Source: Verrucomicrobiaceae bacterium (GTDB lineage Bacteria; Verrucomicrobiota; Verrucomicrobiia; Verrucomicrobiales; Akkermansiaceae). From it: 64,000 nucleotides of DNA. Positions within the stretch are counted from its first letter, which is position 1; each line of letters opens with the position of its first letter. Of this stretch, positions 11,174 to 33,407 are shown piece after piece. Made by a program: the position numbers and the translations under genes. The stretch is taken from contig JAIXWR010000030.1 of NCBI GenBank assembly GCA_027491155.1, positions 1 to 64,000 of the forward strand. Reading direction: 5' to 3'. Below the pieces are notes generated by a model that saw nothing but the letters and a program-made list of their open reading frames with translations, was not told the DNA's origin and made no database searches.

Positions 11174-13798
11174 ATGCAAAAAACGCCAACGCATCGTACC
11201 CGCAGCACCGTCGCGACCCTCCTGGCCGTGGCCGCCGTGATGCCGGTCACCCTGACAGTCGCCAACGCCGGTGAAGGAGTTTCCGGCGGCGGCAGCTACA
11301 GCGGCCTCGCCCAGAAGGAAATGCTCCGCCGTCAGAACGCGGTTGCCCAATCCGATTCGCTCCGCGACGAAGGCCGCGAAGCCTACGCCAAGGGCGACTA
11401 CAAGAAGGCCGTGGACAAGTACAAGGAGGCCCTTCAGGTGCTCCCCGATGCGCCGATGGTCCAGGACCGCCGCACCTACCTGACCCAGGTGCTGGCCGAT
11501 GCCTCGACCGCCCTTGGTGAAAGCTACCGCAAGGTCGGCAAGTACGAGGAAGCACGCGCCCTCGCCGCCGACGTGCTGGCCGTCGATGCCAACAACGCCG
11601 ATGCGAACCGCCTCAACGAATACCTCGACGATCCGATCCGCACCAACCCCGCGCTGACCTTCGAGCACACCCAGAACGTCGACGAGGTCCGCCGCAAGCT
11701 CTACACCGCCGAAGGCCACTACAACCTCGGCAAATACGACGAAGCGAACCGCGTTTACGAGGAAGTCCTCCGGATCGACCCCTACAACAAGGCCGCCCGC
11801 CGCGGTATGGAACAGGTCGCCCAGGCCCGTGCCGATTACTACCGCGCCGCCTACGACCACACCCGCGCCCACCTCCTCGCCGAAGTGGACCGCGCCTGGG
11901 AAATGTCCGTCCCGCCGCTCATCACCGATGAGATCGGCCCTGACACCCAGCCCGAAGGAATCCAGGGCGGTGCCACCTACATCCTCAACAAGCTGAAGAC
12001 GATCGTCATCCCGGTGATCGACTTCGAGGACACCTCGGTCGAAGAAGCCGTGGACTTCCTCCGCCTCCGCTCCATCGAACTGGATGTCGGCGAGCTGGAT
12101 CCCAACCGCAAGGGCATCAACTTCGTGATCCGCAAGCCCCGCACCGGCGGTGGCGGCGATGCCGGCCTCGATGCCGACGCCGCGGGTGGCCTCGGTGCCG
12201 CCCAGGATCCCGGCGCGCTCCGCATCAAGGAGCTCCGCCTGCGCAACGTGCCGCTGGCCGAGGCGCTCAAGTACATCTGCGAGCAGACCAAGCTCCGCTA
12301 CAAGGTCGACGAGTTCGCCGTGACCCTGGTCCCCGCGACCGAGACCGACGAAGACCTCTTCACCCGCAGCTTCCGCGTCCCGCCGGACTTCCTCAGCAAG
12401 CTGGGCGGCGGCGGCGGTGGCGGCGGCGATGAAGGCGGCGACGACCCCTTCGCCGAAGACGCCGGCGGCGGCGGCGGTGCCCTTGCTCCCCGCAAGAACG
12501 AGACCGAGCTCCTCAAGGACAACGGCGTGAAGTTCCCGGAAGGGGCCTCGGCCAAGTTCTTCGCCGGCAGCTCGACCCTTCTGGTGCGCAACACCCCGAC
12601 CAACCTCGACCTGATCGAGCAGATCGTCGAGAACGTCACGGGTGACTCGCCGAAGCAGGTCAAGATCTCGACCAAGTTCGTCGAAATCTCCCAGGAGAAC
12701 ACCGACGAGCTCGGCTTCGACTGGATCGTTTCGCCCTTCGGTCTTTCCGCCAACCAGGTCTTCCTCGGCGGCGGCACGGTCGGCAGCGGCCAGGTCCGCA
12801 CGAATGCCGACTTCATCGGCACCGTGGCCGGGGTGAACCTGCCCGGGGTTCCGGCGGCCCCCGCCGTCCCCGTGACCGACATCGTCACCGCCGGCACCCG
12901 CAGCGGCGACGGTGCCATCAACCGCAACAACATCGATGCGGTCCTTAACAATCCGTCCCGCACCGCCCAGAGGGCCAATCCGGCACCGGGCATCGCGGCC
13001 CTCACCGGTCTGTTCTCCGACGGCCAGGTGCAGATGATCATGCGCGGACTCGCCCAGAAGAAGGGCACCGACCTCATGACCGCGCCCAGCATCACCGCCC
13101 GTTCCGGTGAAAAGGCGCTGATCGAGATCATCCGCGAATTCATCTACCCGACCGAATACGAGCCCCCCGAACTGCCGAACTCGATCGGCGGCGGTCAGGG
13201 AGGCGGCCTCGACGGCGGCCTCGGCGGCAACGCGGGGATCTTCCCCGTGACCCCGGCGACCCCGACCTCGTTCGAGACCCGCAACACGGGTGTCACCCTC
13301 GAGATCGAGCCGACCATCGGTGGCAACGACTTCGTCATCGACCTCCGTTTCGCGCCCGACATCGTCGAGTTCGAAGGCTTCGTGAACTACGGCAGCCCGA
13401 TCCAATCGCCTGCCACCGACTTCCTCGGCAACCCGACGACCGTGACCATCACGGAAAACCGGATCGAGATGCCGGTGTTCTCCAGCCGCCGCGTGACCAC
13501 GGCACTGACCATCTACGACGGCTACACCGTCGCGGTCGGTGGCCTGATGCGCGAGGACGTGCAGACGGTCGAAGACAAGGTGCCGGTCCTCGGGGACATC
13601 CCGATCGTCGGCCGCCTTTTCCAGACCAAGGCCGAGAACCGGATCAAGAGCAACCTGATCATCTTCGTCACCGCCCAGATCATCGACGCCACGGGTCGCC
13701 CGCTCCGCGGGGCGGATTCGATGCCTGCCGTCGACGGAGTCGGCGATGCCGGAGCGCTCCCCACCGGTGACGTGCTCCCGCCGCCTCCCGCCGAGTAA
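11174..13798 (+). CDS. TPR-containing type II/IV secretin (PilQ/GspD-like), Amuc_1098-like
   Basis: Signal peptide, TPR-like N-terminus (GREAYAKGDYKKAVDKYKEALQVLP), secretin domain (VKISTKFVEISQENTDELGFDW, DLMTAPSITARSGEKA, VPVLGDIPIVGRLFQTK). Confidence 0.93.
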   Translation: MQKTPTHRTRSTVATLLAVAAVMPVTLTVANAGEGVSGGGSYSGLAQKEMLRRQNAVAQSDSLRDEGREAYAKGDYKKAVDKYKEALQVLPDAPMVQDRRTYLTQVLADASTALGESYRKVGKYEEARALAADVLAVDANNADANRLNEYLDDPIRTNPALTFEHTQNVDEVRRKLYTAEGHYNLGKYDEANRVYEEVLRIDPYNKAARRGMEQVAQARADYYRAAYDHTRAHLLAEVDRAWEMSVPPLITDEIGPDTQPEGIQGGATYILNKLKTIVIPVIDFEDTSVEEAVDFLRLRSIELDVGELDPNRKGINFVIRKPRTGGGGDAGLDADAAGGLGAAQDPGALRIKELRLRNVPLAEALKYICEQTKLRYKVDEFAVTLVPATETDEDLFTRSFRVPPDFLSKLGGGGGGGGDEGGDDPFAEDAGGGGGALAPRKNETELLKDNGVKFPEGASAKFFAGSSTLLVRNTPTNLDLIEQIVENVTGDSPKQVKISTKFVEISQENTDELGFDWIVSPFGLSANQVFLGGGTVGSGQVRTNADFIGTVAGVNLPGVPAAPAVPVTDIVTAGTRSGDGAINRNNIDAVLNNPSRTAQRANPAPGIAALTGLFSDGQVQMIMRGLAQKKGTDLMTAPSITARSGEKALIEIIREFIYPTEYEPPELPNSIGGGQGGGLDGGLGGNAGIFPVTPATPTSFETRNTGVTLEIEPTIGGNDFVIDLRFAPDIVEFEGFVNYGSPIQSPATDFLGNPTTVTITENRIEMPVFSSRRVTTALTIYDGYTVAVGGLMREDVQTVEDKVPVLGDIPIVGRLFQTKAENRIKSNLIIFVTAQIIDATGRPLRGADSMPAVDGVGDAGALPTGDVLPPPPAE

Positions 13799-13826
13799 TC
13801 GGCAGCGCGCTGCTTCAAGATTCATC

Positions 13827-13857
13827 GCGGGCGGAAGGGCAACCTTCCGCCCGCTTT
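13827..13857 (+). terminator. Rho-independent terminator of the secretin operon
   Basis: Perfect 12-bp stem GCGGGCGGAAGG-GCAA-CCTTCCGCCCGC followed by TTTGTTT. Confidence 0.9.
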
Positions 13858-13875
13858 GTTTGGATACGGCAGCCC

Positions 13876-14035
13876 CCCGGACCGCCGGTCTGCGACCGGC
13901 CGAATGGTCGCCGGCAGCTGACCTCACCCCGTCGGCCCGAACCCGATGCGGCGCCTGCTTGAACAACGGCCAAGTGCACGAACAAGCCAGTCTCAAGTGA
14001 CCGTTCAGCCGGTCGCAGACCGGCGCTCCCGGGGG
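13876..14035. repeat. ~156-bp repeat element B (inverted copy of element A)
   Basis: Ends CGCCGGTCTGCGACCGGC / GCCGGTCGCAGACCGGCGCTCCCGG; reverse complement aligns along its length with 1109-1264. Confidence 0.88.
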
Positions 14036-14107
14036 GGGCTTTCTCGCCCGCCCTGTCCTCGATTTTCAAGGTTGCGGGCCGAGGAATCCGCGTCCCAAGC
14101 TCGGGCC

Positions 14108-16027
14108 ATGCGCGTCTTCGGTCTCAGTGGCGGCATTGCCAGCGGCAAATCGACGGCCTGCGCGATCCTCCGTCGGATCGCCCGCGGGGTGGTGATCTTC
14201 GACGCCGATGCCTGCGTCCACCGTTTGCTCGCCACGTCTCCGGAAGTCGCGGCGGCGGTGGCGGACCGTTTCGGCCCCGGGGTGATCGATGCCGCCGGCG
14301 GGGTCGACCGCGCGCTGCTCCGCGGACGGGTGTTCGGGGACGATGCCGCGCGCCGGGATCTGGAGGCCATTCTCCATCCCCGGGTCCGCGAGGAATGTCT
14401 TGAATCTTTGGCCTCCGCCCGCACACTGCCGGTGTCCTTGTTCGTGGCGGACATCCCGCTCCTCTTCGAAAACGATTTCGACTTCGGGCAGGAAGGCAAT
14501 CTCCTGGTTGCCGCCGGACTCCCCACCCGCCGCAAGCGTCTCCTCGACCGGAGCGGCATGGACGCCACCACCGCCGGGGCCATCCTCGCGGCCCAGATGC
14601 CCCAGGAAGAGAAAATCCGCCGGGCCGACCATGTCTTTTGGAACGAAGGACCGACCACCGTTCTCGAAGCGCAGTTGCAGCGCTTCCTCCATTCCCACGC
14701 CATCATGAGCGAACACGCCGACCTCCCTGAAACCCCTGCCGCCAACGCCGTGCAGGAAGCCGCACCCGTGCCGCAGACCATCGACATCAACGCCTTCCGC
14801 CTCAAGCCGCTGGCGGAACTCCTTTCGATGGCCGAGGCCGTCCCCGCCCGGATCAGCGCCGGGGTGCCGAAGTCCCAGCTGGTCTTCGAACTCCTGAGCT
14901 TCTACGCCAACGAGGGCGCGGTGCTGGTGGGCGAGGGGATCCTCGAGCAGGCCAAGGAGAACTACGCCATGCTGCGCGACCCCGCCCGCAGCTTCCGGAC
15001 TTCCCCCGACGACCTCTACCTGAACGGCCACCTGCTCCGCGACCACGGCCTGCGCGCCGGGCACCGCGTGAAAGTGCGGATCCGTGCACCGCGCGACCGG
15101 GACAAATACCTTTCCGCCGTCGAGATCCTCGAGATCGAAGGCGTGCCCGCTGCCGAGTTCAAGGCACCCAAGGATTTCGACAAGTTGACCCCGCTTTTCC
15201 CCGACCGCCGGATCGTGCTGGAAGGGGAGGGGCCCGACGCCGTGCCGGTGCGGGTGCTGGATCTGGTCGCGCCGCTCGGCAAGGGCCAGCGCGGCCTGAT
15301 CGTCGCCCCGCCGCGGGGTGGCAAGACCATCCTGCTCAAGCAGATCGCCAAGGCGATCCGCCGCAATCATCCGGAGGTCGAATTGATCGTGGTGCTGCTC
15401 GACGAGCGGCCCGAGGAAGTCACCGACTTCGAGGAAACCGTCGGCACGACGGTGTATGCTTCCACTTTCGACGAGGCGCCGAAGCGCCATGCCCAGGTCG
15501 CGGATCTGGTCATCGAACGCGCCCGGCGGCTGGTCGAGCAGGGCAAGGACGTGGTGCTGCTGCTGGACAGCCTGACCCGTCTGGCCCGCGGCCACAACTC
15601 GGCGTCGCAGGGCGGCCCGATCGGCAGCGGCGGCGTCAGCCCGGTGGCTCTGCAGAAGTCGCGCAAGTTCTTCGGCAATGCCCGCAACGTCGAGGAAGGC
15701 GGCAGCCTGACCATCCTCGCCACGGCGCTGATCGAGACCGAAAGCCGCATGGACGACGTGATTTTCGAGGAGTTCAAGGGCACCGGCAACATGGAAGTCC
15801 GGCTCGACCGCGAGCTCGCCGAGCGGCGCGTTTTCCCGGCGATCCACATTCCCCAGAGCGGCACCCGCAACGACGAGCGTCTGTACCACCCCGACGAGTT
15901 CGTCAAGGTCCTGGACCTCCGCCGCCAGCTCGCGCAGTTGCCGGTCGGCGACGCGATCGAGACCCTCCTGAAGAACCTCCGTTCGACCAAGACCAACGCG
16001 GAATTGCTGCTTCGCGGACTGCGTTGA
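14108..16027 (+). CDS. coaE-rho: Fused dephospho-CoA kinase - transcription termination factor Rho
   Basis: One ORF without internal stop: MRVFGLSGGIASGKSTAC...DADACVHRLL...HPRVR (CoaE, ~199 aa), then MSEHADLPE...YLNGHLLRDHGLRAGHRVKV...LIVAPPRGGKTILLKQIA...DSLTRLARGHN (Rho). Internal in-frame ATG at 14705. Confidence 0.9.
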   Translation: MRVFGLSGGIASGKSTACAILRRIARGVVIFDADACVHRLLATSPEVAAAVADRFGPGVIDAAGGVDRALLRGRVFGDDAARRDLEAILHPRVREECLESLASARTLPVSLFVADIPLLFENDFDFGQEGNLLVAAGLPTRRKRLLDRSGMDATTAGAILAAQMPQEEKIRRADHVFWNEGPTTVLEAQLQRFLHSHAIMSEHADLPETPAANAVQEAAPVPQTIDINAFRLKPLAELLSMAEAVPARISAGVPKSQLVFELLSFYANEGAVLVGEGILEQAKENYAMLRDPARSFRTSPDDLYLNGHLLRDHGLRAGHRVKVRIRAPRDRDKYLSAVEILEIEGVPAAEFKAPKDFDKLTPLFPDRRIVLEGEGPDAVPVRVLDLVAPLGKGQRGLIVAPPRGGKTILLKQIAKAIRRNHPEVELIVVLLDERPEEVTDFEETVGTTVYASTFDEAPKRHAQVADLVIERARRLVEQGKDVVLLLDSLTRLARGHNSASQGGPIGSGGVSPVALQKSRKFFGNARNVEEGGSLTILATALIETESRMDDVIFEEFKGTGNMEVRLDRELAERRVFPAIHIPQSGTRNDERLYHPDEFVKVLDLRRQLAQLPVGDAIETLLKNLRSTKTNAELLLRGLR

Positions 16028-19325: not shown

Positions 19326-21944
<2,619 letters not shown>

Positions 21945-21996
21945 TCCTTCCCGGATCGCCCATGATCGCGTCTGATCACTGATCCCATCCCTTTCC

Positions 21997-24729
21997 ATGT
22001 CCCAGGATTCCATCAAGCCCATCAACGTCGCCGAGGAACTGTCGAACTCCTTCCTGGAGTACTCGATGTCGGTCATCATCTCGCGTGCCCTGCCCGACGT
22101 CCGCGACGGGCTCAAGCCCTCCCAGCGCCGCGTGCTCTACGCGATGCGCCAGCTCGGCGTGACGCCCGGCAAGGCCCACGTGAAGTGCGCCAAGATCGTC
22201 GGTGAAACGATGGGCAACTACCACCCGCACGGCGACCAATCGATCTACACGACCCTCGTCAACATGGGCCAGCCCTGGTCGATGCGCGAGATGCTGGTCG
22301 ACGGCCAGGGCAACTTTGGCTCGGTCGAAGGCGACGCCGCGGCGTCGATGCGTTACACCGAGGCCCGCCTGCACCACCTCGGCATGGCGATGATGGAAGA
22401 CCTCGACAAGGACACCGTCGACTTCCAGCCGAACTACGACGGCTCGCAGGAGGAACCCTCCGTGCTGCCTTCCGCCTTCCCGAACTTCCTGGTCAACGGC
22501 GGCACCGGCATCGCGGTCGGCATGGCCACCAACCTCGCGCCGCACAACCTGGGCGAAGTCATCGACGGCATCTGCGCGCAGATCGACAACCCGGAGATCA
22601 CGCTTCCCCAGCTGATGCAGCACATCAAGGGCCCGGACTTCCCGGTGTCCTGCGAGATCCGCGGCATCCGCGGGATCGAGGAGTATTTCCGCACCGGCCG
22701 TGGCTCGATGCGCCTCCGCGGCAAGGTCGAGATCGAGGAGAACGAAGGCGGCAAATCGCTCATCGTCATCCGCGAGGTGCCCTACGGCGTGAACCGCGCC
22801 GTGCTCCAGGAGCGCATCGCCGAACTGGTCAACGAGAAGACCCTGACCGGCATTTCCGGCATGCGCGACCTCTCCGACGAAGAGACCCGCATTGAAATCG
22901 AGCTCAAGCGCGACGCCCGCCCGCAGGTCGTGGTCGCCCAGCTCTTCAAGCTCACCGCGCTGGAGACCTCGTTCAGCGTGAACATGCTGGCGATCCACAA
23001 GAACCGGCCGAAGCAGCTTTCGCTCAAGGAGGCGATCGACGCCTACATCGAGCACCGCCGCGAGGTCGTCATCCGGCGCACGCGTTTCCTGCTCGGCAAG
23101 GCCGAGGAGCGTGCCGAACTGCTCGAGGCCTTCCTGCTCGCGCTCGGCCACCTCGACGACTTCATCAAGATCATCCGCGACTCGAAGAACCGCGACGAGG
23201 CCCGCGAACGGCTGGCCGCCTACCAGTTTTCCACCGCCACCGCGGAAGGACTCGGCATCCTGATCCGCTCGCAGGCGGCGGTGCAGGGCGACCGTTATGT
23301 TTTCAGCGAGCGCCAGGTCAACGCGATCCTGGAACTCCGCCTCTACCAGCTCACCGGTCTCGAACGCGACAAGGTGAAGGGCGAGTACGACGAGATCCTG
23401 GAGACCATCAAGGACTTGCTCGACATCCTGGCCCGCGAGGAACGGGTGCTCACCATCATCAAGGACGAGCTCCGCGCCCTGAAGGAAAAGCACGCGACCC
23501 CGCGCAAGTGCCCGATCCTCGCCGAGGCCGGCGAGATCGCGATGGAGGAACTCATCGCCAACGACGCGATGATCGTGACGCTTTCCCACCGCGGCTACAT
23601 CAAGCGCACTCCGGCCAGCGAATACCGCCTGCAAGGCCGCGGCGGCAAGGGCCTGAAAGGCATGGAGACCAAGGCGAGCGGCAAGGACCAGGCCGACGAC
23701 TTCGTCGAGCACCTGTTCTCCGTCCAGGCCCACGACTACCTGATGTTCTTCACCAACACCGGGCGCGTTTACGTCGAGCGGGTGTACGAGCTGCCCGAAG
23801 GCTCCCGCACTTCGACCGGGCGCAGCATCAAGAACGTGCTCGACCTTAAGCCCGACGAGAAGATCGCCGCCTTGCTCCGCCTCGAGCGCAGCACCGACGA
23901 GAATGGCAACGACAACACCTTCCGCGAGGGGGCAGGCTACGTGTTCTTCGCCACCCGCAACGGCAAGGTGAAGAAGACCGACCTCAACGAATTCCGCAAC
24001 TACCGCAAGGCCGGCCTGACCGCCATCAACCTGGAGGAAGGCAACGACCTGATCGGCGTGAACCTCACCAGCGGTGAGGACGAGATCGTCCTCGTCACCC
24101 GCGATGGCATGAGCATCAAGTTCACCGAAGGCGTTTACAAGAAGCCCCAGGGCGAACCTGCCGAAGGCGAGGAGCCCGTCGAAGAAGATTCCGGCGAGGA
24201 AGATGCCGCCGAGGATGAAGGCAAGCCGCAGATCCGCCCGCAAGGCCGCGCGACCGCCGGGGTCACCGGCATCCGGATGCGCAAGGACGACTACGTGGTC
24301 GGCATGGCGATCGTCTCGGAAGAATCGATGCTGCTCGTAGCCTCGGAGAACGGTCTCGGCAAACGCACGGCATTCTCCAGCTACCGTGCCCTCCGCCGCG
24401 GCGGCCGCGGGGTGAAGACCCTCAATGTCACCGAGAAGACCGGCAAGGTCGTCAACGCCGTCGCCGTCACCGAGCAGGACGAGCTGATGCTCATGACCTC
24501 CACCGGCCAAAGCATCCGCATCCGCGTCAGCGAGATCCGCGAGACCGGCCGCGTGGCGCAGGGGGTGAAGCTGCTGACCTTGAAGGAAGGCGAGAAGCTG
24601 CAGGACATCTCGCTGGTGATTCCGGATGGGGAGGATGCGGGTGGCGATGCGCCTGATGGAGCGCCTTCCGATGGAGCGCCGGCTTCAGCCGGCTTGGAAG
24701 AATCGGGAAGCGAGGAAGATGCCGGCTAA
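21997..24729 (+). CDS. gyrA: DNA gyrase subunit A
   Basis: [58 protein letters not shown]; GyrA C-terminal repeats. Last ~17 codons and the stop lie in a REPIN. Confidence 0.98.
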
Positions 24730-24741
24730 AGCCGGCGCTCC
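24673..24741. repeat. REPIN 1: two REP palindromes in inverted orientation
   Basis: GGAGCGCCGGCTTCAGCCGGC (24673-24693) and GCCGGCTAAAGCCGGCGCTCC (24721-24741). Confidence 0.92.
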
Positions 24742-24757
24742 CTGAGAAAGGAGTCCC

Positions 24758-25393
24758 ATGGGAAAGGGAATCTACACCCGAGGTTACCTGCCCCATTGGG
24801 ATTTCGAGGGCTCCGTTCAAGCGGTAACCTTCCGCTTGGGTGACTCGGTGCCCGGGAGACTGATCGAGGCCTGGAGGAAGGAATTGGAAATCGAAGTGGA
24901 TGAGCTCGCCAGGCAGAAGGAGATTCATCGCAGGATCTCAAAATACGAAGATGCCGGGCACGGTGAATCCCATTTGAAGCGTGCCGACTGCGCCGTGATC
25001 GTTCAAGGGAAGCTGATCGCCGGGCACGCTTCCAGCTATCGACTGATCGACTGGTGCATCATGCCGAACCACGTGCATGTGTTGTTCCGCTTGGAAGGGG
25101 AGGCGGTGCTGGCCGACATCGTCCAGTCGTGGAAAGGAACGAGCGCGTTCGAGATCAACCGCTTGATCGGCAGATCCGGCCCATTCTGGCAACGGGACTA
25201 CTACGACCGCTTCGTTCGTGACATGGATCACTTTCACGATTGCCGGATCTACATTCGCGAGAACCCGGTGAAAGCAGGACTCTGCGCCAAGCCTGAGGAT
25301 TGGAGCTTCTCTTCCGCCGGTTGCGGATGGGATCCAAACGGAGCGCCGGCTTCAGCCGGCTTGGAAGAATCCGCGAACGAAGATGCCGGCTAA
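24758..25393 (+). mobile_element. REP-associated tyrosine transposase (RAYT; Y1/HUH transposase family) CDS
   Basis: TRGYLPHWDFEGSVQAVTFRL, IMPNHVHVLFRL (HUH), GRSGPFWQRDYYDRFVRD, YIRENPVKAGLCAKPEDWSFSSA; flanked by REPINs. Confidence 0.92.
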
Positions 25394-25405
25394 AGCCAGC
25401 GCTCC
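25340..25405. repeat. REPIN 2: inverted pair of REP palindromes
   Basis: GGAGCGCCGGCTTCAGCCGGC (25340-25360) and GCCGGCTAAAGCCAGCGCTCC (25385-25405). Confidence 0.92.
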
Positions 25406-25414
25406 ATCCAGAAT

Positions 25415-25435
25415 GCCGGCTGAAGCCGGCGCTCC
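25415..25435. repeat. Single REP palindrome just upstream of jetA-like start
   Basis: GCCGGCTGAAGCCGGCGCTCC. Confidence 0.9.
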
Positions 25436-25445
25436 CTTCCCGAAG

Positions 25446-26894
25446 ATGCCTGCCGACCTCCTCTCCACCGCCTTGTTCCGCGAAACGCGGGGCCCCGGAT
25501 TCTTCCGGGTGCTGGCGGGGAGGAACGCGCCATTCTACGTCGACGTGCTCGACTCGCTCGAGCGCGAGTCGACCGACCGCCCGGACGGGATCGCCCGCGA
25601 CGAAGCGCTGGCGATCATCGTGGAAACCCTGGAGCGCCATCCGGGCTTCGAGTTCGACGAGGAGGCCGATGCGGAATCGCTGCCGGCCGACCTCCGGGAG
25701 CGGGCGCGGCTGCTGTTGGAATTCCTGCTCAGGAACCACTGGCTTGAAGAACCGCCGCGGCGCGACTGGCGGCGGATGATCCATTTCGACGCCCACGGCG
25801 CGACCCTGCTGGCCGCGTTGCGCAAGATCGCGTGGCCGGACGCGGCGGTCTTCACCGACAAGCTGACCGGCGTGTGCTCGATGCTCGCGAACGAGGTCGA
25901 ACTTTCCGAGCGCCCGTGGCAGACGGTGGAGAACTGCCTGTCGAATGTCCGCGAGGGCATCAACGAGCTGCGTTCCATGCAGAAATCGGTGCAGCGCTTC
26001 ACCCGCAAGCAGCTCGAGGAGGAAACGCTGCAGGGGAACCTTTCGGTGGTCTTCGACGACTACGCCGAGCAGATGTCGCATTCCTGCTACGCCGCGCTGG
26101 TGCGGGCGCGCTTGCCGATGCGGCTGCCGGACGCGGTCCGCCGGATCACCGAGCGCTTGGCGGACGACCCCGCGGCGCTGGCCGACATGCAGACCGAGGT
26201 GCTGCTTCGCCACCCGGATCTTTCCGCCGAAAGCGCGCGGGCACGGGTGGCAGCTGCCTTGGAGGAGTTGATTGACCTGTTAGAGCGGGTGCTGCCGATG
26301 GCCGACGAGATCGACCGCCGCACCGCCGATTTCACGCGGCGGTCGCTGGCGCGCTTCCGCTACTTGCAGGATGTCACCGGCGAGCGCCGCACCGAACTGA
26401 GGGCCTTCTTCGAGACCGCCAACCGCCTGCTCGCCGGCCGCCGGATCCAGCGGACGAATGCCACGCTGCCGGAGTTGCCGGACCTGCTGCTGCCGGCGGT
26501 GAAGCTGCCCGGCGGGCTCGACTCGCTCTACTCGCCACCGAACCGCCGGCCGGCCATGGAGCAGGACGCCTTCGACGACACGGTGTCCGACGGCGACCGC
26601 GACGCCGGTCTCCACGACATGCAGCGGACCATCCGCGAGACGCTGTCGGTGGCGCGAGCGAACCGCTTCATCCAGTCGCTGCCCGGCGGCAAGGGCGAGC
26701 GCATCGAAAGCCACGCGCTCGATCTCGGCGGCGGGCATTCCGCGGCGGATCTGATCGCGCTGCTGCTCCACGCCGAAGCTCCCGACGCGCGCTACCGGAT
26801 CGAGGCGCGCCGCGTCGCCGACGAATCCGTCCCGCCGCCGACCGACACGCTTCACCAAGTCCGCGTCGAGCGGTTCGCCATCATCAAGAAATGA
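25446..26894 (+). CDS. jetA: JetA/MksF-like (kleisin-type) subunit of Wadjet/Mks SMC complex
   Basis: LLSTALFRETRGPGFFRVLAGRNAPFYVDVLDSLERES N-terminus, long helical protein, 4-nt overlapping operon with JetB/JetC-like genes. Confidence 0.75.
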   Translation: MPADLLSTALFRETRGPGFFRVLAGRNAPFYVDVLDSLERESTDRPDGIARDEALAIIVETLERHPGFEFDEEADAESLPADLRERARLLLEFLLRNHWLEEPPRRDWRRMIHFDAHGATLLAALRKIAWPDAAVFTDKLTGVCSMLANEVELSERPWQTVENCLSNVREGINELRSMQKSVQRFTRKQLEEETLQGNLSVVFDDYAEQMSHSCYAALVRARLPMRLPDAVRRITERLADDPAALADMQTEVLLRHPDLSAESARARVAAALEELIDLLERVLPMADEIDRRTADFTRRSLARFRYLQDVTGERRTELRAFFETANRLLAGRRIQRTNATLPELPDLLLPAVKLPGGLDSLYSPPNRRPAMEQDAFDDTVSDGDRDAGLHDMQRTIRETLSVARANRFIQSLPGGKGERIESHALDLGGGHSAADLIALLLHAEAPDARYRIEARRVADESVPPPTDTLHQVRVERFAIIKK

Positions 26895-27550
26895 GCACCG
26901 AAGAACCCAGCGCCTTTGTCACGGAGACCGCGCCGACCTTGCTCGCGCTTTCGGAAAGCGACCGCGACCGCCTGTCGGAAGCGCTCCAGGAATTGCTTTC
27001 GACCGGTTCGATCAACGGCCTCGATGCCCCCCGCGCCGCGCTCTACCACTGGGCGCGCCAGCACGACGACTGGCTGCGCGAGATCGCCGCGCTCAACGGC
27101 CTGGACGTCGCGGTGCACCACGAGGAGCGCCTGATCCAGGCCATCCCGCGCGCCGCCGGCCTGCGTCTGCGGTTGAAACAGGACGAGACCCTGGTCTGGC
27201 TCGCGCTGTGGTATGCCGGCGACATCCGCTGGCGCGACGAGGGTGCCGACCAGGCCTTCCTTTCGGTCGCCGAGTTGGGCGACCTGCTGCGCGACCAGTT
27301 GCTGCCCGACGCCGCCGCGCCGATCCCGAAGGGCCGCCTGCGCGAGATCCTGCGGCAGGCCGCGCGGCTGAACCTGATCCGCCTGACCCACGCCGAGCCC
27401 TTCGAGGAAACGGGGATCGAAGTCATGCCCGCCATCCGCCGCGTGCTGCCCTTCCGCGAACTTGCGGCGTGGCAGGAAGCCGCCGCGAATTTCCGGCCCG
27501 ACGCGCTCGAAGAAACCGAGGACGAACCCGAAGAAGACGAACCGTCATGA
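26891..27550 (+). CDS. jetB: JetB/MksE-like (DUF4194-type) subunit
   Basis: Winged-helix-like DETLVWLALWYAGDIRWRDEGADQAFLSVAELGDLL; ATGA overlaps with both neighbours. Confidence 0.78.
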   Translation: MSTEEPSAFVTETAPTLLALSESDRDRLSEALQELLSTGSINGLDAPRAALYHWARQHDDWLREIAALNGLDVAVHHEERLIQAIPRAAGLRLRLKQDETLVWLALWYAGDIRWRDEGADQAFLSVAELGDLLRDQLLPDAAAPIPKGRLREILRQAARLNLIRLTHAEPFEETGIEVMPAIRRVLPFRELAAWQEAAANFRPDALEETEDEPEEDEPS

Positions 27551-30500
27551 GCCGTGCCATCCGCCTCACCCAACTCCACGCGCTGAACTGGTACGGCTAC
27601 CGCGATTCGCTGCCCGTGCAGGGCAACCTCGTGCTCGCCGGGGTCACCGGCTCCGGCAAGTCGATCCTGATGGACCTGCTCATGCTCGTGCTGGTCGGCC
27701 CGGAGCGCGCCCACCATCACTTCAACCGCTCCGCCACCGGCAGCAAGAGCGACCGGACGATCAAGGGCTACTGCCTGTTAGATACGAAACGCGAGGAGAA
27801 CGGGCAGACACAGTACTTCCACGACAAGGGCGTCACCACCTACATCGCCGCCGAGTTCACCTGGCCGGACGGCAAGCGGGTCGAGACCTGGGGCCTGCGC
27901 TTCGAGTTCCGCTCCGCCGCGGAGAACGACGGCACGACGACGCCGTTCTTCTGCCCCGCCTCGCTGGCGAAGTCCGACTTCCTGACAGAATCCGAGGACG
28001 GCAAGCCGCGGATGAGCCCGCTGGGCGCGTTCAAGAAGCTGATCGATGCGAAGGGCGGCCGCCTCTTCAGCTCGCCGCGCGAATACCTGCGCGACATGGC
28101 GAACCCGAGCCACCTGAACTTCAACAAGGACGTGCTCCAGCGCCTGCTGCCGAGCGCGATGTCGTTCACCAACCTCAAGAGCTTCGACGACTTCTGCCGC
28201 CAGTTCGTGCTGCCCGCCGAGGCGGTGCCGGTCGAGGACGTCGTGTCGTCCTTCCGCGACTTCCAGTCCTACGAGCGCGAGCTTGCCAGCCTCAGGGCTC
28301 AGCTCGACCGCCTGACCCGGATCCGAGATCACGCCGCGAAGCTGCGCGAGGCCGAGCGCGATCATGCGGTGGCGACGTATCTCGCGGCGGAGTTCGGACA
28401 CGTCCATGCCTCGGCAGAAGCGGAGCAAACGCGCGAACGCCTGGAGCGGCTGAAGGTCGACAACCAGGCCGACGAGGCGCGGCTGGCCGAGATCGCGGAG
28501 CTGACGGAAAGCGGCACGCGCAAGCGCGAGGGCTTGCAAGCCTTGCTCAACGAGTCCGCCGACGGCCGGCTCTACAACAAGCTCGTGGCCGATCTCACGA
28601 AGCTGGAAGCCGAGATCGAGCAGCTCCGCGACCGCGCGAGCAAGCTCGACGGCGGCCTTGGCAAGCGGCTGAAGTCCGCCCGCGCGTGGATGGAACAGGT
28701 CGGCAAGGCGCCGCTCCAGCCGGTCGTCGACACCACCCGTCTGAAGAACGCGATCGGCTTCCTCGAAAGCTGCGAGCGCGAGCAGACCGCGTCGTCGCTG
28801 TCCCTGCTGGCCGAAGCCGCGAACGAAACGGTGAAGACGATCCGCAGCCGCTTCGACGGCGACCGCGAGGAGCTGCGCCGCCTGCGCACGGAGAAGTCCG
28901 AGCTCCAGGCGCAGATCGATTTGCTCCAGCGCGGCGTTTCGCCCGGCCCGCAGCCCTTGCTCGCCGCGCTGAAGTCCCAATTGTCCTTGCTGCCGAACCA
29001 GACGCCGCCGCGCGCCTTGCGCGAGGTCTGCGAGGTGATGGACGAATCGTGGCGCGCCGCCGCGGAGGTGGTGTTCGAGGAGAAGTTCGCCGTGCTCGTC
29101 GCGGAGACTCACTACGCGGAGGCGTCGGCCATTTTGAAGAAGCTGCCCCTTTCCGATCTGACCAGTGCCGGGGCGCAGCGCTTGATCGACATCGCTGCGG
29201 TCCGAGCCGCGAAGCCCGCGGCGAAGAAGGGCTCGCTGGCGGAGTTGCTGCTAACGACCGATGACGACTCGCGGGCCTGCATCGACGAGCTGTTCGGCGA
29301 CATGGTCCGGGTGAGCGATCCGGCCCAGCTCGACCGCCATCACTCCGCCATCGCGGCCGACGGCTTGCACAAGCGCGCCGGGACCTTGGTACGGCCCGCG
29401 CCGTACAACGGGACGCCCTTCATCGGGAAGGAAGGCCTCAAGCGTCAGCTCGAAATCAAGCGGCAGCGGCTCGACGAGATTGAGGCCTCGCTGCGGCGGC
29501 TGGAGCCGGTCGAGCAGGAGGTCGAGCGCCTGATCCGCGAACGGGCCAGCGCCATCCCGGAGCACGAGGACGTGATCAAGGAGCTGATCCGCATCGAGGA
29601 CCTTCCGGGAAAGCAGGAGCAGCACGCCGAGCTGATGGAGCAGCTCGATGCCATCGCCACCGACGAGTTCGACCGCATCCGCGACGACATCGAGGCGCTG
29701 GCCGAGCGGCTCGCGTCGTACGATGCCGAGCGTACGTCGATCCTGCGCAAGGGCCGGATCCGCGAGATCCAGGACACCGAGAAGCTGCTGGCCCAGCTGG
29801 TGGAGACCGCCAGCCGGCGCGAGGACGAGTTCTCGAAGGTGCAACTCCGCATCGACATCCACCGGCATCACGAGCGCTACGTTTCCTGGAAGAAGGAGGC
29901 CTCCGACTACACGCCCGCGCCGGACGTGCTGGCCAACGAGTTCCGCAAGGCCGCCGCGGCGGCGGAGATCGCGGCGAAGGAGGCGACCGGCGATCTCAAG
30001 GTGGCGATGCTCGATTTCAAGAAGACGTTCGCGCCGAAGTTCGACGACCTGCCCGAGGACGGCGCGGACAGCACGCCCTACGAGACGCGGCTCCAGCAGA
30101 TCGAACACGCCAACATCCCCGAGTACGAGAAGAAGTCGGTGACCGAGCGCAAGCGCTGGGAATCGCTGTTCCGGACCCAGGTGCTCAGCCGGATGCAGCA
30201 GGCGCTGAAGAACGTCGAGAACATCATCTCGCTGCTCAACCACCAGCTCAAGCGGCCGATCGGGCACGACCGTTACAAGATCGAGCGCCGGCCGAATCCG
30301 GAGTACAAGATCTACCGCGACCTGATCGACCTCAACGCGCTGCATCACGAGGACGAGCTGTTTTTCGCCAGCATGGGCGGCGAGCTGCAGGACGCCCTCA
30401 AGGGCTTCCTCAATCTCCTCGTGCAGAATGCCAGCAGCCCGGAGGCGGCCCGGCTGTTGGACTACCGCCAGTACTTCGACTACGACCTCACCGTGACCGA

Positions 30501-30939
30501 CATCCGCGATCCGGACGGCAAGTCGATCAGCGTCGACAAGCAGGGCGGCAAGATGAGCGGCGGCGAGAACCAGAGCCCGTACTTCGTCGCCATTCTCGCC
30601 AGCTACCTGCACGCCTACAACCGGCACGAGAACCGCCGCAAGGAGCCGTCGCTGGCGCTGGTTCCGATCGACGAGGCCTTCTCGAAGCTGTCCGGCGAGC
30701 GCATCCAGAACTGCATCGAGGCGATGGCGGAGCTCGACCTGCAGGGCATGTTCTCGATGTCGAGCGGCAACATCCCGTATGCTTTCAGCCAGTGCGACGA
30801 GTTGATCGTGATCTCGCGCAAGGAGGAGCGGCGCGGCAACCGGGTCGGGGTGCGCAACGTGCCGGTGGTGCTTTTCCGCGATTCGCCGGAAGGGCGGAAG
30901 TGGATCGCGGAAAGCGAAGAGGAGAAGCAGGCCGGTTGA
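27547..30939 (+). CDS. jetC: JetC/MksB-like SMC ATPase
   Basis: Walker A LAGVTGSGKSILMDLLMLVLVG, long coiled coil, signature KMSGGENQSPYFVAILASYLHAY, Walker B SLALVPIDEAFSKLSGERIQNCIEAM. Confidence 0.9.
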   Translation: MSRAIRLTQLHALNWYGYRDSLPVQGNLVLAGVTGSGKSILMDLLMLVLVGPERAHHHFNRSATGSKSDRTIKGYCLLDTKREENGQTQYFHDKGVTTYIAAEFTWPDGKRVETWGLRFEFRSAAENDGTTTPFFCPASLAKSDFLTESEDGKPRMSPLGAFKKLIDAKGGRLFSSPREYLRDMANPSHLNFNKDVLQRLLPSAMSFTNLKSFDDFCRQFVLPAEAVPVEDVVSSFRDFQSYERELASLRAQLDRLTRIRDHAAKLREAERDHAVATYLAAEFGHVHASAEAEQTRERLERLKVDNQADEARLAEIAELTESGTRKREGLQALLNESADGRLYNKLVADLTKLEAEIEQLRDRASKLDGGLGKRLKSARAWMEQVGKAPLQPVVDTTRLKNAIGFLESCEREQTASSLSLLAEAANETVKTIRSRFDGDREELRRLRTEKSELQAQIDLLQRGVSPGPQPLLAALKSQLSLLPNQTPPRALREVCEVMDESWRAAAEVVFEEKFAVLVAETHYAEASAILKKLPLSDLTSAGAQRLIDIAAVRAAKPAAKKGSLAELLLTTDDDSRACIDELFGDMVRVSDPAQLDRHHSAIAADGLHKRAGTLVRPAPYNGTPFIGKEGLKRQLEIKRQRLDEIEASLRRLEPVEQEVERLIRERASAIPEHEDVIKELIRIEDLPGKQEQHAELMEQLDAIATDEFDRIRDDIEALAERLASYDAERTSILRKGRIREIQDTEKLLAQLVETASRREDEFSKVQLRIDIHRHHERYVSWKKEASDYTPAPDVLANEFRKAAAAAEIAAKEATGDLKVAMLDFKKTFAPKFDDLPEDGADSTPYETRLQQIEHANIPEYEKKSVTERKRWESLFRTQVLSRMQQALKNVENIISLLNHQLKRPIGHDRYKIERRPNPEYKIYRDLIDLNALHHEDELFFASMGGELQDALKGFLNLLVQNASSPEAARLLDYRQYFDYDLTVTDIRDPDGKSISVDKQGGKMSGGENQSPYFVAILASYLHAYNRHENRRKEPSLALVPIDEAFSKLSGERIQNCIEAMAELDLQGMFSMSSGNIPYAFSQCDELIVISRKEERRGNRVGVRNVPVVLFRDSPEGRKWIAESEEEKQAG

Positions 30940-30951
30940 AGCCGGCGCTCC
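30931..30951. repeat. REP palindrome containing the jetC stop codon
   Basis: GCCGGTTGAAGCCGGCGCTCC; TGA at 30937-30939. Confidence 0.88.
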
Positions 30952-30965
30952 ACGAGAAGCACGCC

Positions 30966-33407
<2,442 letters not shown>

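What the first reader, a model, noticed from the sequence alone, without database searches (positions are those of the whole stretch)
25446..30939. Wadjet/Mks-like JetABC operon without JetD nearby
Three genes with 4-nt ATGA overlaps encode JetA/MksF-, JetB/MksE- and JetC/MksB-like proteins (Walker A GVTGSGKS, signature MSGGENQ, Walker B PIDEAF). Canonical Wadjet systems add JetD, the Toprim-type nuclease that cleaves extruded plasmids. Here jetC is followed directly by convergent ftsK, and no JetD-like ORF is present in this window. It could be a nuclease-less condensin, a system using a trans-encoded or alternative nuclease, or a degraded defence system.
Basis: partly seen in the sequence, partly recalled or inferred. 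Interest (0 to 1): 0.75.

Follow-up and report, generated by a model that had tools for sequence, protein, structure and literature searches.

The report
Anti-plasmid motor that lost its nuclease
This bacterium carries an intact DNA-looping motor from a plasmid-destroying defence system (Wadjet) whose DNA-cutting gene was cleanly deleted, a fresh example of how a defence machine may turn into a chromosome-organising one.

Summary
jetA, jetB and jetC (25446-30939) form a type I Wadjet core with 4-nt ATGA overlaps and intact ATPase motifs. No jetD is found in the window or in the genome (46 contigs, 99.67% complete), by Pfam or by a 22-sequence local profile. The nearest relative (JetC 95% identical) has the same locus order, gyrB-gyrA-jetABC-jetD-transposase-ftsK. 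The window keeps 50 bp where that relative has 2141 bp, and a single REP-type repeat sits at the scar. So jetD was probably deleted recently, perhaps by exchange between REP repeats. jetABC still evolves under purifying selection on the window lineage (N/S per site 0.09-0.19, about the same as in the jetD-bearing sister). Among 50 JetC-bearing family genomes, 13 lack a detectable jetD; on the tree the 'no jetD' state changed at least 7 times, and jetD is encoded in trans in at least five genomes. One JetD-less clade includes four genomes with no Smc-ScpAB. Best reading: a disarmed Wadjet core that cannot cleave plasmids, probably retained as an MksBEF-like accessory loop extruder. A remnant not yet decayed is the main rival. 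Loss of JetD as the origin of MksBEF was already proposed; this is a fresh example.

The parts
25446..26894 (+). jetA / mksF-like kleisin, 482 aa
   Evidence: PF18982 JetA 4.5e-40; PADLOC JetA1 1.1e-29; 90% identical to the homologue in L057
26891..27550 (+). jetB / mksE-like KITE subunit, 219 aa; N-terminus nearly the same as in the jetD-bearing sister
   Evidence: DUF4194 3.6e-14; PADLOC JetB1; alignment
27547..30939 (+). jetC / mksB-like SMC ATPase, 1130 aa, Walker A, signature and Walker B intact
   Evidence: PADLOC JetC1 8e-153; motifs; JetC profile hits solved JetC 9qxt 2.7e-27 and 8as8 5.5e-26
30918..30967 (.). Deletion scar: 50 bp here against 2141 bp in L057, which hold jetD and a REP-associated transposase
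   Evidence: blastn collinearity breaks at window 30917/30968 and L057 13371/15513
30932..30951 (+). Single REP-type repeat unit at the scar; it supplies the jetC stop codon
   Evidence: 1 mismatch to a REP found 7 times in the window, 0 expected
30966..33407 (-). ftsK, convergent, the other side of the scar
   Evidence: FtsK_SpoIIIE 7.4e-64 plus alpha, gamma and 4TM domains; 93% identical in L057
24758..25393 (+). REP-associated tyrosine transposase (RAYT) between gyrA and jetA; in L057 a relative lies between jetD and ftsK
   Evidence: NF047646 4.6e-24, above cut-off
24673..24741 (.). REP inverted pair upstream of the RAYT
25340..25435 (.). REP units downstream of the RAYT, just before jetA
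21997..24729 (+). gyrA; gyrBA lies directly upstream of jet operons in several relatives
   Evidence: TIGR01063 gyrA above cut-off; synteny in L051, L052, L054, L057
19404..21944 (+). gyrB
   Evidence: TIGR01059 above cut-off

Best explanation
This is a chromosomal type I Wadjet locus (gyrBA-jetABCD-ftsK) that lost jetD by deletion, possibly by exchange between REP repeats lying on both sides of jetD. Shown: the intact JetABC genes, the clean absence of jetD, and the sister locus that still has it. Inferred: JetABC is still made and still works as an ATP-driven loop extruder on DNA. Without the Toprim nuclease it cannot cut small circular DNA, so it no longer clears plasmids. It instead acts as an accessory MksBEF-like condensin beside the Smc-ScpAB of this genome.
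For: Type I Wadjet core by PADLOC, Pfam and a PDB profile. No jetD in window or genome; a single JetC in the genome. Sister L057 is collinear except for jetD plus a transposase, with a REP unit at the scar. Purifying selection on the window branch is unchanged relative to the jetD-bearing branch: jetC N/S per site 0.089 vs 0.094, jetA 0.194 vs 0.203, jetB 0.169 vs 0.142; gyrA 0.092 vs 0.093. A second sister pair, G007/G011, shows the same clean loss with pairwise jetABC omega 0.05-0.07. A whole JetD-less JetC clade persists across genera with intact genes, and four of its genomes lack Smc, ScpA and ScpB. P. [quoted passage not shown] PMC7485682).
Against: The loss cannot be dated within the branch, so unchanged selection could mostly predate it. 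The window genome has a full Smc-ScpAB set, so JetABC is not needed as its only condensin. No expression, binding or phenotype data exist.
Confidence: 0.58

Rival explanations
1. Passive remnant: jetD was lost so recently that jetABC has not yet decayed; the three proteins now have no selected function.
For: The sister at 95% JetC identity still has jetD, so the loss is young. Broken or partial jetD copies occur in relatives: a fragment in G064, frame-split hits in G003 and L053. L056 holds a jetC with no jetA, jetB or jetD around it.
Against: All three genes are intact, with N/S no higher than in the jetD-bearing sister. Other JetD-less lineages keep jetABC intact over long times.
Confidence: 0.3
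2. The core works with a nuclease encoded elsewhere: an undetected jetD in trans, or an unrelated nuclease, so plasmid cleavage still happens.
For: jetD is encoded away from jetABC in relatives, e.g. G125 (complete genome), G104, G095, G070 and G006, and those JetDs group with the JetD clade expected from their JetC.
Against: No JetD in this genome with PF09983 or with a profile that finds the trans JetDs of relatives. Genes downstream of JetD-less jetC loci show no shared candidate replacement.
Confidence: 0.08
3. Assembly artefact: jetD is present but was dropped when the assembler collapsed REP repeats.
For: A REP repeat lies exactly at the junction and the genome is in 46 contigs.
Against: The repeat is only about 20 bp, short enough for reads to span; jetD appears on no other contig; the G007/G011 pair shows a like loss.
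Confidence: 0.04

Closest known systems
Wadjet type I (JetABCD / MksBEFG / EptABCD)
   Same: JetA, JetB and JetC families, gene order, overlaps, ATPase motifs; close relatives carry jetD in the same place
   Different: JetD (Toprim nuclease), required for plasmid clearance, is absent from locus and genome
MksBEF of Pseudomonas aeruginosa PAO1
   Same: Three-gene SMC-kleisin-KITE set without the nuclease, beside a canonical Smc-ScpAB; thought to have arisen by loss of JetD (PMC10586767)
   Different: Separate and much more recent loss, in the Verrucomicrobiota; no evidence yet of a chromosomal role here; sequence distance to PAO1 MksB was not measured
MukBEF of Escherichia coli
   Same: Same overall class of SMC-kleisin-KITE machine without a nuclease
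   Different: MukBEF replaced Smc-ScpAB in its hosts; here Smc-ScpAB is present, and the proteins match the Jet type I families

Membership tests
Wadjet type I (complete defence system) | JetA kleisin (type I family) | tested here: met
   PF18982 4.5e-40 and PADLOC JetA1 1.1e-29
Wadjet type I (complete defence system) | JetB (DUF4194, type I family) | tested here: met
Wadjet type I (complete defence system) | JetC SMC ATPase with Walker A, signature and Walker B | tested here: met
   PADLOC JetC1 8e-153 and motif positions
Wadjet type I (complete defence system) | JetD Toprim nuclease | tested here: not met
   absent from window and genome
Wadjet type I (complete defence system) | Excludes or cleaves small circular plasmids | not testable with these tools
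   needs an assay; expected to fail without JetD
MksBEF-type nuclease-less condensin | SMC-kleisin-KITE operon with no MksG/JetD | tested here: met
MksBEF-type nuclease-less condensin | Retained under selection without the nuclease | tested here: inconclusive
   low N/S on the branch, but the loss is undated within it; supported in the long-lived JetD-less clade
MksBEF-type nuclease-less condensin | Contributes to chromosome organisation or segregation | not testable with these tools
   needs Hi-C, imaging or a deletion phenotype

The most novel reading that the evidence does not exclude
In this bacterial order Wadjet cores repeatedly shed or relocate their nuclease and turn into condensins. 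In one JetD-less clade (G030, G045, G054, G083) such a core has taken over from Smc-ScpAB and is the only recognisable condensin. The window is a very young step on that path.
Probability: 0.35. Interest if true: 0.78.

Novelty: new variant of a known kind. Interest (0 to 1): 0.5.

Why it matters
How MukBEF and MksBEF condensins relate to the Wadjet defence system is unsettled; loss of JetD has been proposed as the step from defence to housekeeping (PMC10586767). Here close relatives differ at the same locus by little more than jetD, twice (window/L057 and G007/G011). That gives natural before-and-after pairs in which the step can be tested. The JetD-less clade without Smc-ScpAB could be the end point of the same path.

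Tried and rejected
Looked for a jetD remnant by blastn and tblastn: none. Looked for a conserved replacement gene downstream of jetC in 19 loci without an adjacent full-length jetD (some of them the same locus fetched twice): no shared gene seen. Considered that JetABC had replaced Smc-ScpAB in this genome: rejected, Smc, ScpA and ScpB are present. Considered the upstream RAYT as the missing nuclease: rejected as a partner, because it is a REP-associated transposase whose position varies among relatives. Looked for a change in the JetB N-terminus, reported to contact JetD: nearly the same as in the jetD-bearing sister, so uninformative. Single-sequence searches of the PDB gave nothing; the profile gave JetC structures. 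Searches failed on coordinates or format. No structure prediction was run.

Full report
Observation. Profiles put all three in Wadjet type I: JetA1 1.1e-29, JetB1 3.7e-11, JetC1 8e-153; JetA PF18982 4.5e-40, DUF4194, SbcC_Walker_B. A profile of local JetCs finds the solved Wadjet JetC structures (9qxt, 8as8). The genome holds one JetC.

No JetD. The JetD_C model finds nothing in the genome, while it rings in the Corynebacterium glutamicum control. A profile built from 22 JetDs of related genomes, with the Toprim residues conserved, also finds nothing here, yet finds JetD in 43 of 145 relatives. tblastn of six JetDs against the window finds no remnant.

How it was lost. L057, a genome with a 95% identical JetC, is collinear with the window: gyrB, gyrA, jetA, jetB, jetC, then jetD (13567-14775) and a REP-associated transposase, then convergent ftsK and a phosphomannose isomerase gene. 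The window has 50 bp (30918-30967) where L057 has 2141 bp. A single REP-type unit (30932-30951) sits at the join and supplies the jetC stop codon; this repeat occurs 7 times in the window and 0 times in shuffles. In L057, inverted repeats of other sequences lie on both sides of jetD. The simplest account is a deletion between two repeats; the absence is shown, the deletion is well supported, the REP mechanism is an inference. Direction: the nearest outgroups by JetC with known state (L047, L073, L074) have an adjacent jetD, so loss is more likely than gain. JetD of L057 is closer to that of L052 than the JetC tree predicts, which leaves room for a replacement of jetD in L057.

Is the core still kept? 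With L047 as outgroup, non-synonymous to synonymous changes per site on the window branch are 0.194 (jetA), 0.169 (jetB) and 0.089 (jetC), against 0.203, 0.142 and 0.094 on the branch that still has jetD; gyrA, with L052 as outgroup, gives 0.092 and 0.093. There is no sign of decay, but the loss is not dated within the branch.

The wider pattern. In the family sample of 180 genomes at least 90% complete, 50 have a JetC match and 37 have a JetD match; all 37 also have JetC, so 13 JetC genomes have no detectable JetD. Some of these 13 may be contig-end effects (G230, G231 were not inspected), and the JetD of G064 is only a fragment. On the JetC tree the 'none' state needs at least 7 changes, forced by strongly supported branches. 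A second close pair, G007 (none) and G011 (adjacent), is collinear apart from a clean loss of jetD, with jetABC omega 0.05-0.07. In G125, G104, G095, G070 and G006 the only JetD lies away from the only JetABC, and falls in the JetD clade expected from the JetC. Genes downstream of the JetD-less loci share nothing evident. JetD diverges faster than JetC (for example L047/L057: 52% against 83%).

A JetD-less clade without Smc. Six JetCs at 35-39% identity to the window's form one fully supported clade, all without JetD; a seventh, incomplete member, G076, has a JetD on another contig. Four of those genomes (G030, G045, G054, G083) have no ScpA, ScpB or SMC hinge match; G069, G092 and G076 have all three. 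In the family sample, ScpA is missing in 4 of 13 JetC genomes without JetD and in 0 of 37 with JetD. The four are one clade, so this is not an independent statistical test. Akkermansia-like genomes (g3) lack both JetC and ScpA; absence of known condensins in A. muciniphila has been published (PMC10197239).

Interpretation. JetABC is the DNA-sensing, loop-extruding part and JetD the cutter; all four are needed for plasmid suppression (PMC10586767). A core without JetD should therefore not clear plasmids. That MksBEF of P. aeruginosa likely came from JetABCD by losing JetD, and that it organises the chromosome, is stated in the literature. By anatomy the window locus works like an MksBEF. Whether it does so in the cell is not shown; the genome also has Smc-ScpAB. 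The main rival is a young remnant.

Verdict. Observation confirmed; interpretation supported and sharpened. As a complete Wadjet system it fails the JetD test; as a nuclease-less SMC core it passes. New variant of a known kind.

Noticed in passing
G030, G045, G054, G083 (jet loci L066, L062, L064, L065): JetD-less JetABC in genomes with no detectable Smc, ScpA or ScpB: a possible takeover of the canonical condensin's role.
   Followed up: partly
Genus g3 (e.g. G042, G060, G074, near-complete genomes): Akkermansia-like genomes lack ScpA and also JetC (three tested also lack ScpB and SMC hinge, among them G042 and G060); lack of known condensins in A. muciniphila is reported in PMC10197239.
   Followed up: partly
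G125 C1: jetABC near 2.78 Mb (L077), jetD near 5.29 Mb (L078): Complete genome with jetD encoded about 2.5 Mb from its jetABC; similar separation in G104, G095, G070 and G006.
   Followed up: partly
L056:9818-13381: A jetC 86% identical to the window's, standing alone with no jetA, jetB or jetD nearby.
   Followed up: no
L074 (G003) and L053, jetD: jetD matches split over two frames, suggesting frameshifted jetD or sequence error.
   Followed up: no
window 24673-25435; L051, L054, L057: A REP-associated tyrosine transposase (flanked by REP units in the window) sits beside jet operons in several genomes, at different positions; it may drive their rearrangement.
   Followed up: partly
window 19404-27550; L051, L052, L054, L057: gyrB-gyrA directly upstream of the jet operon in several genomes of the order.
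   Followed up: partly
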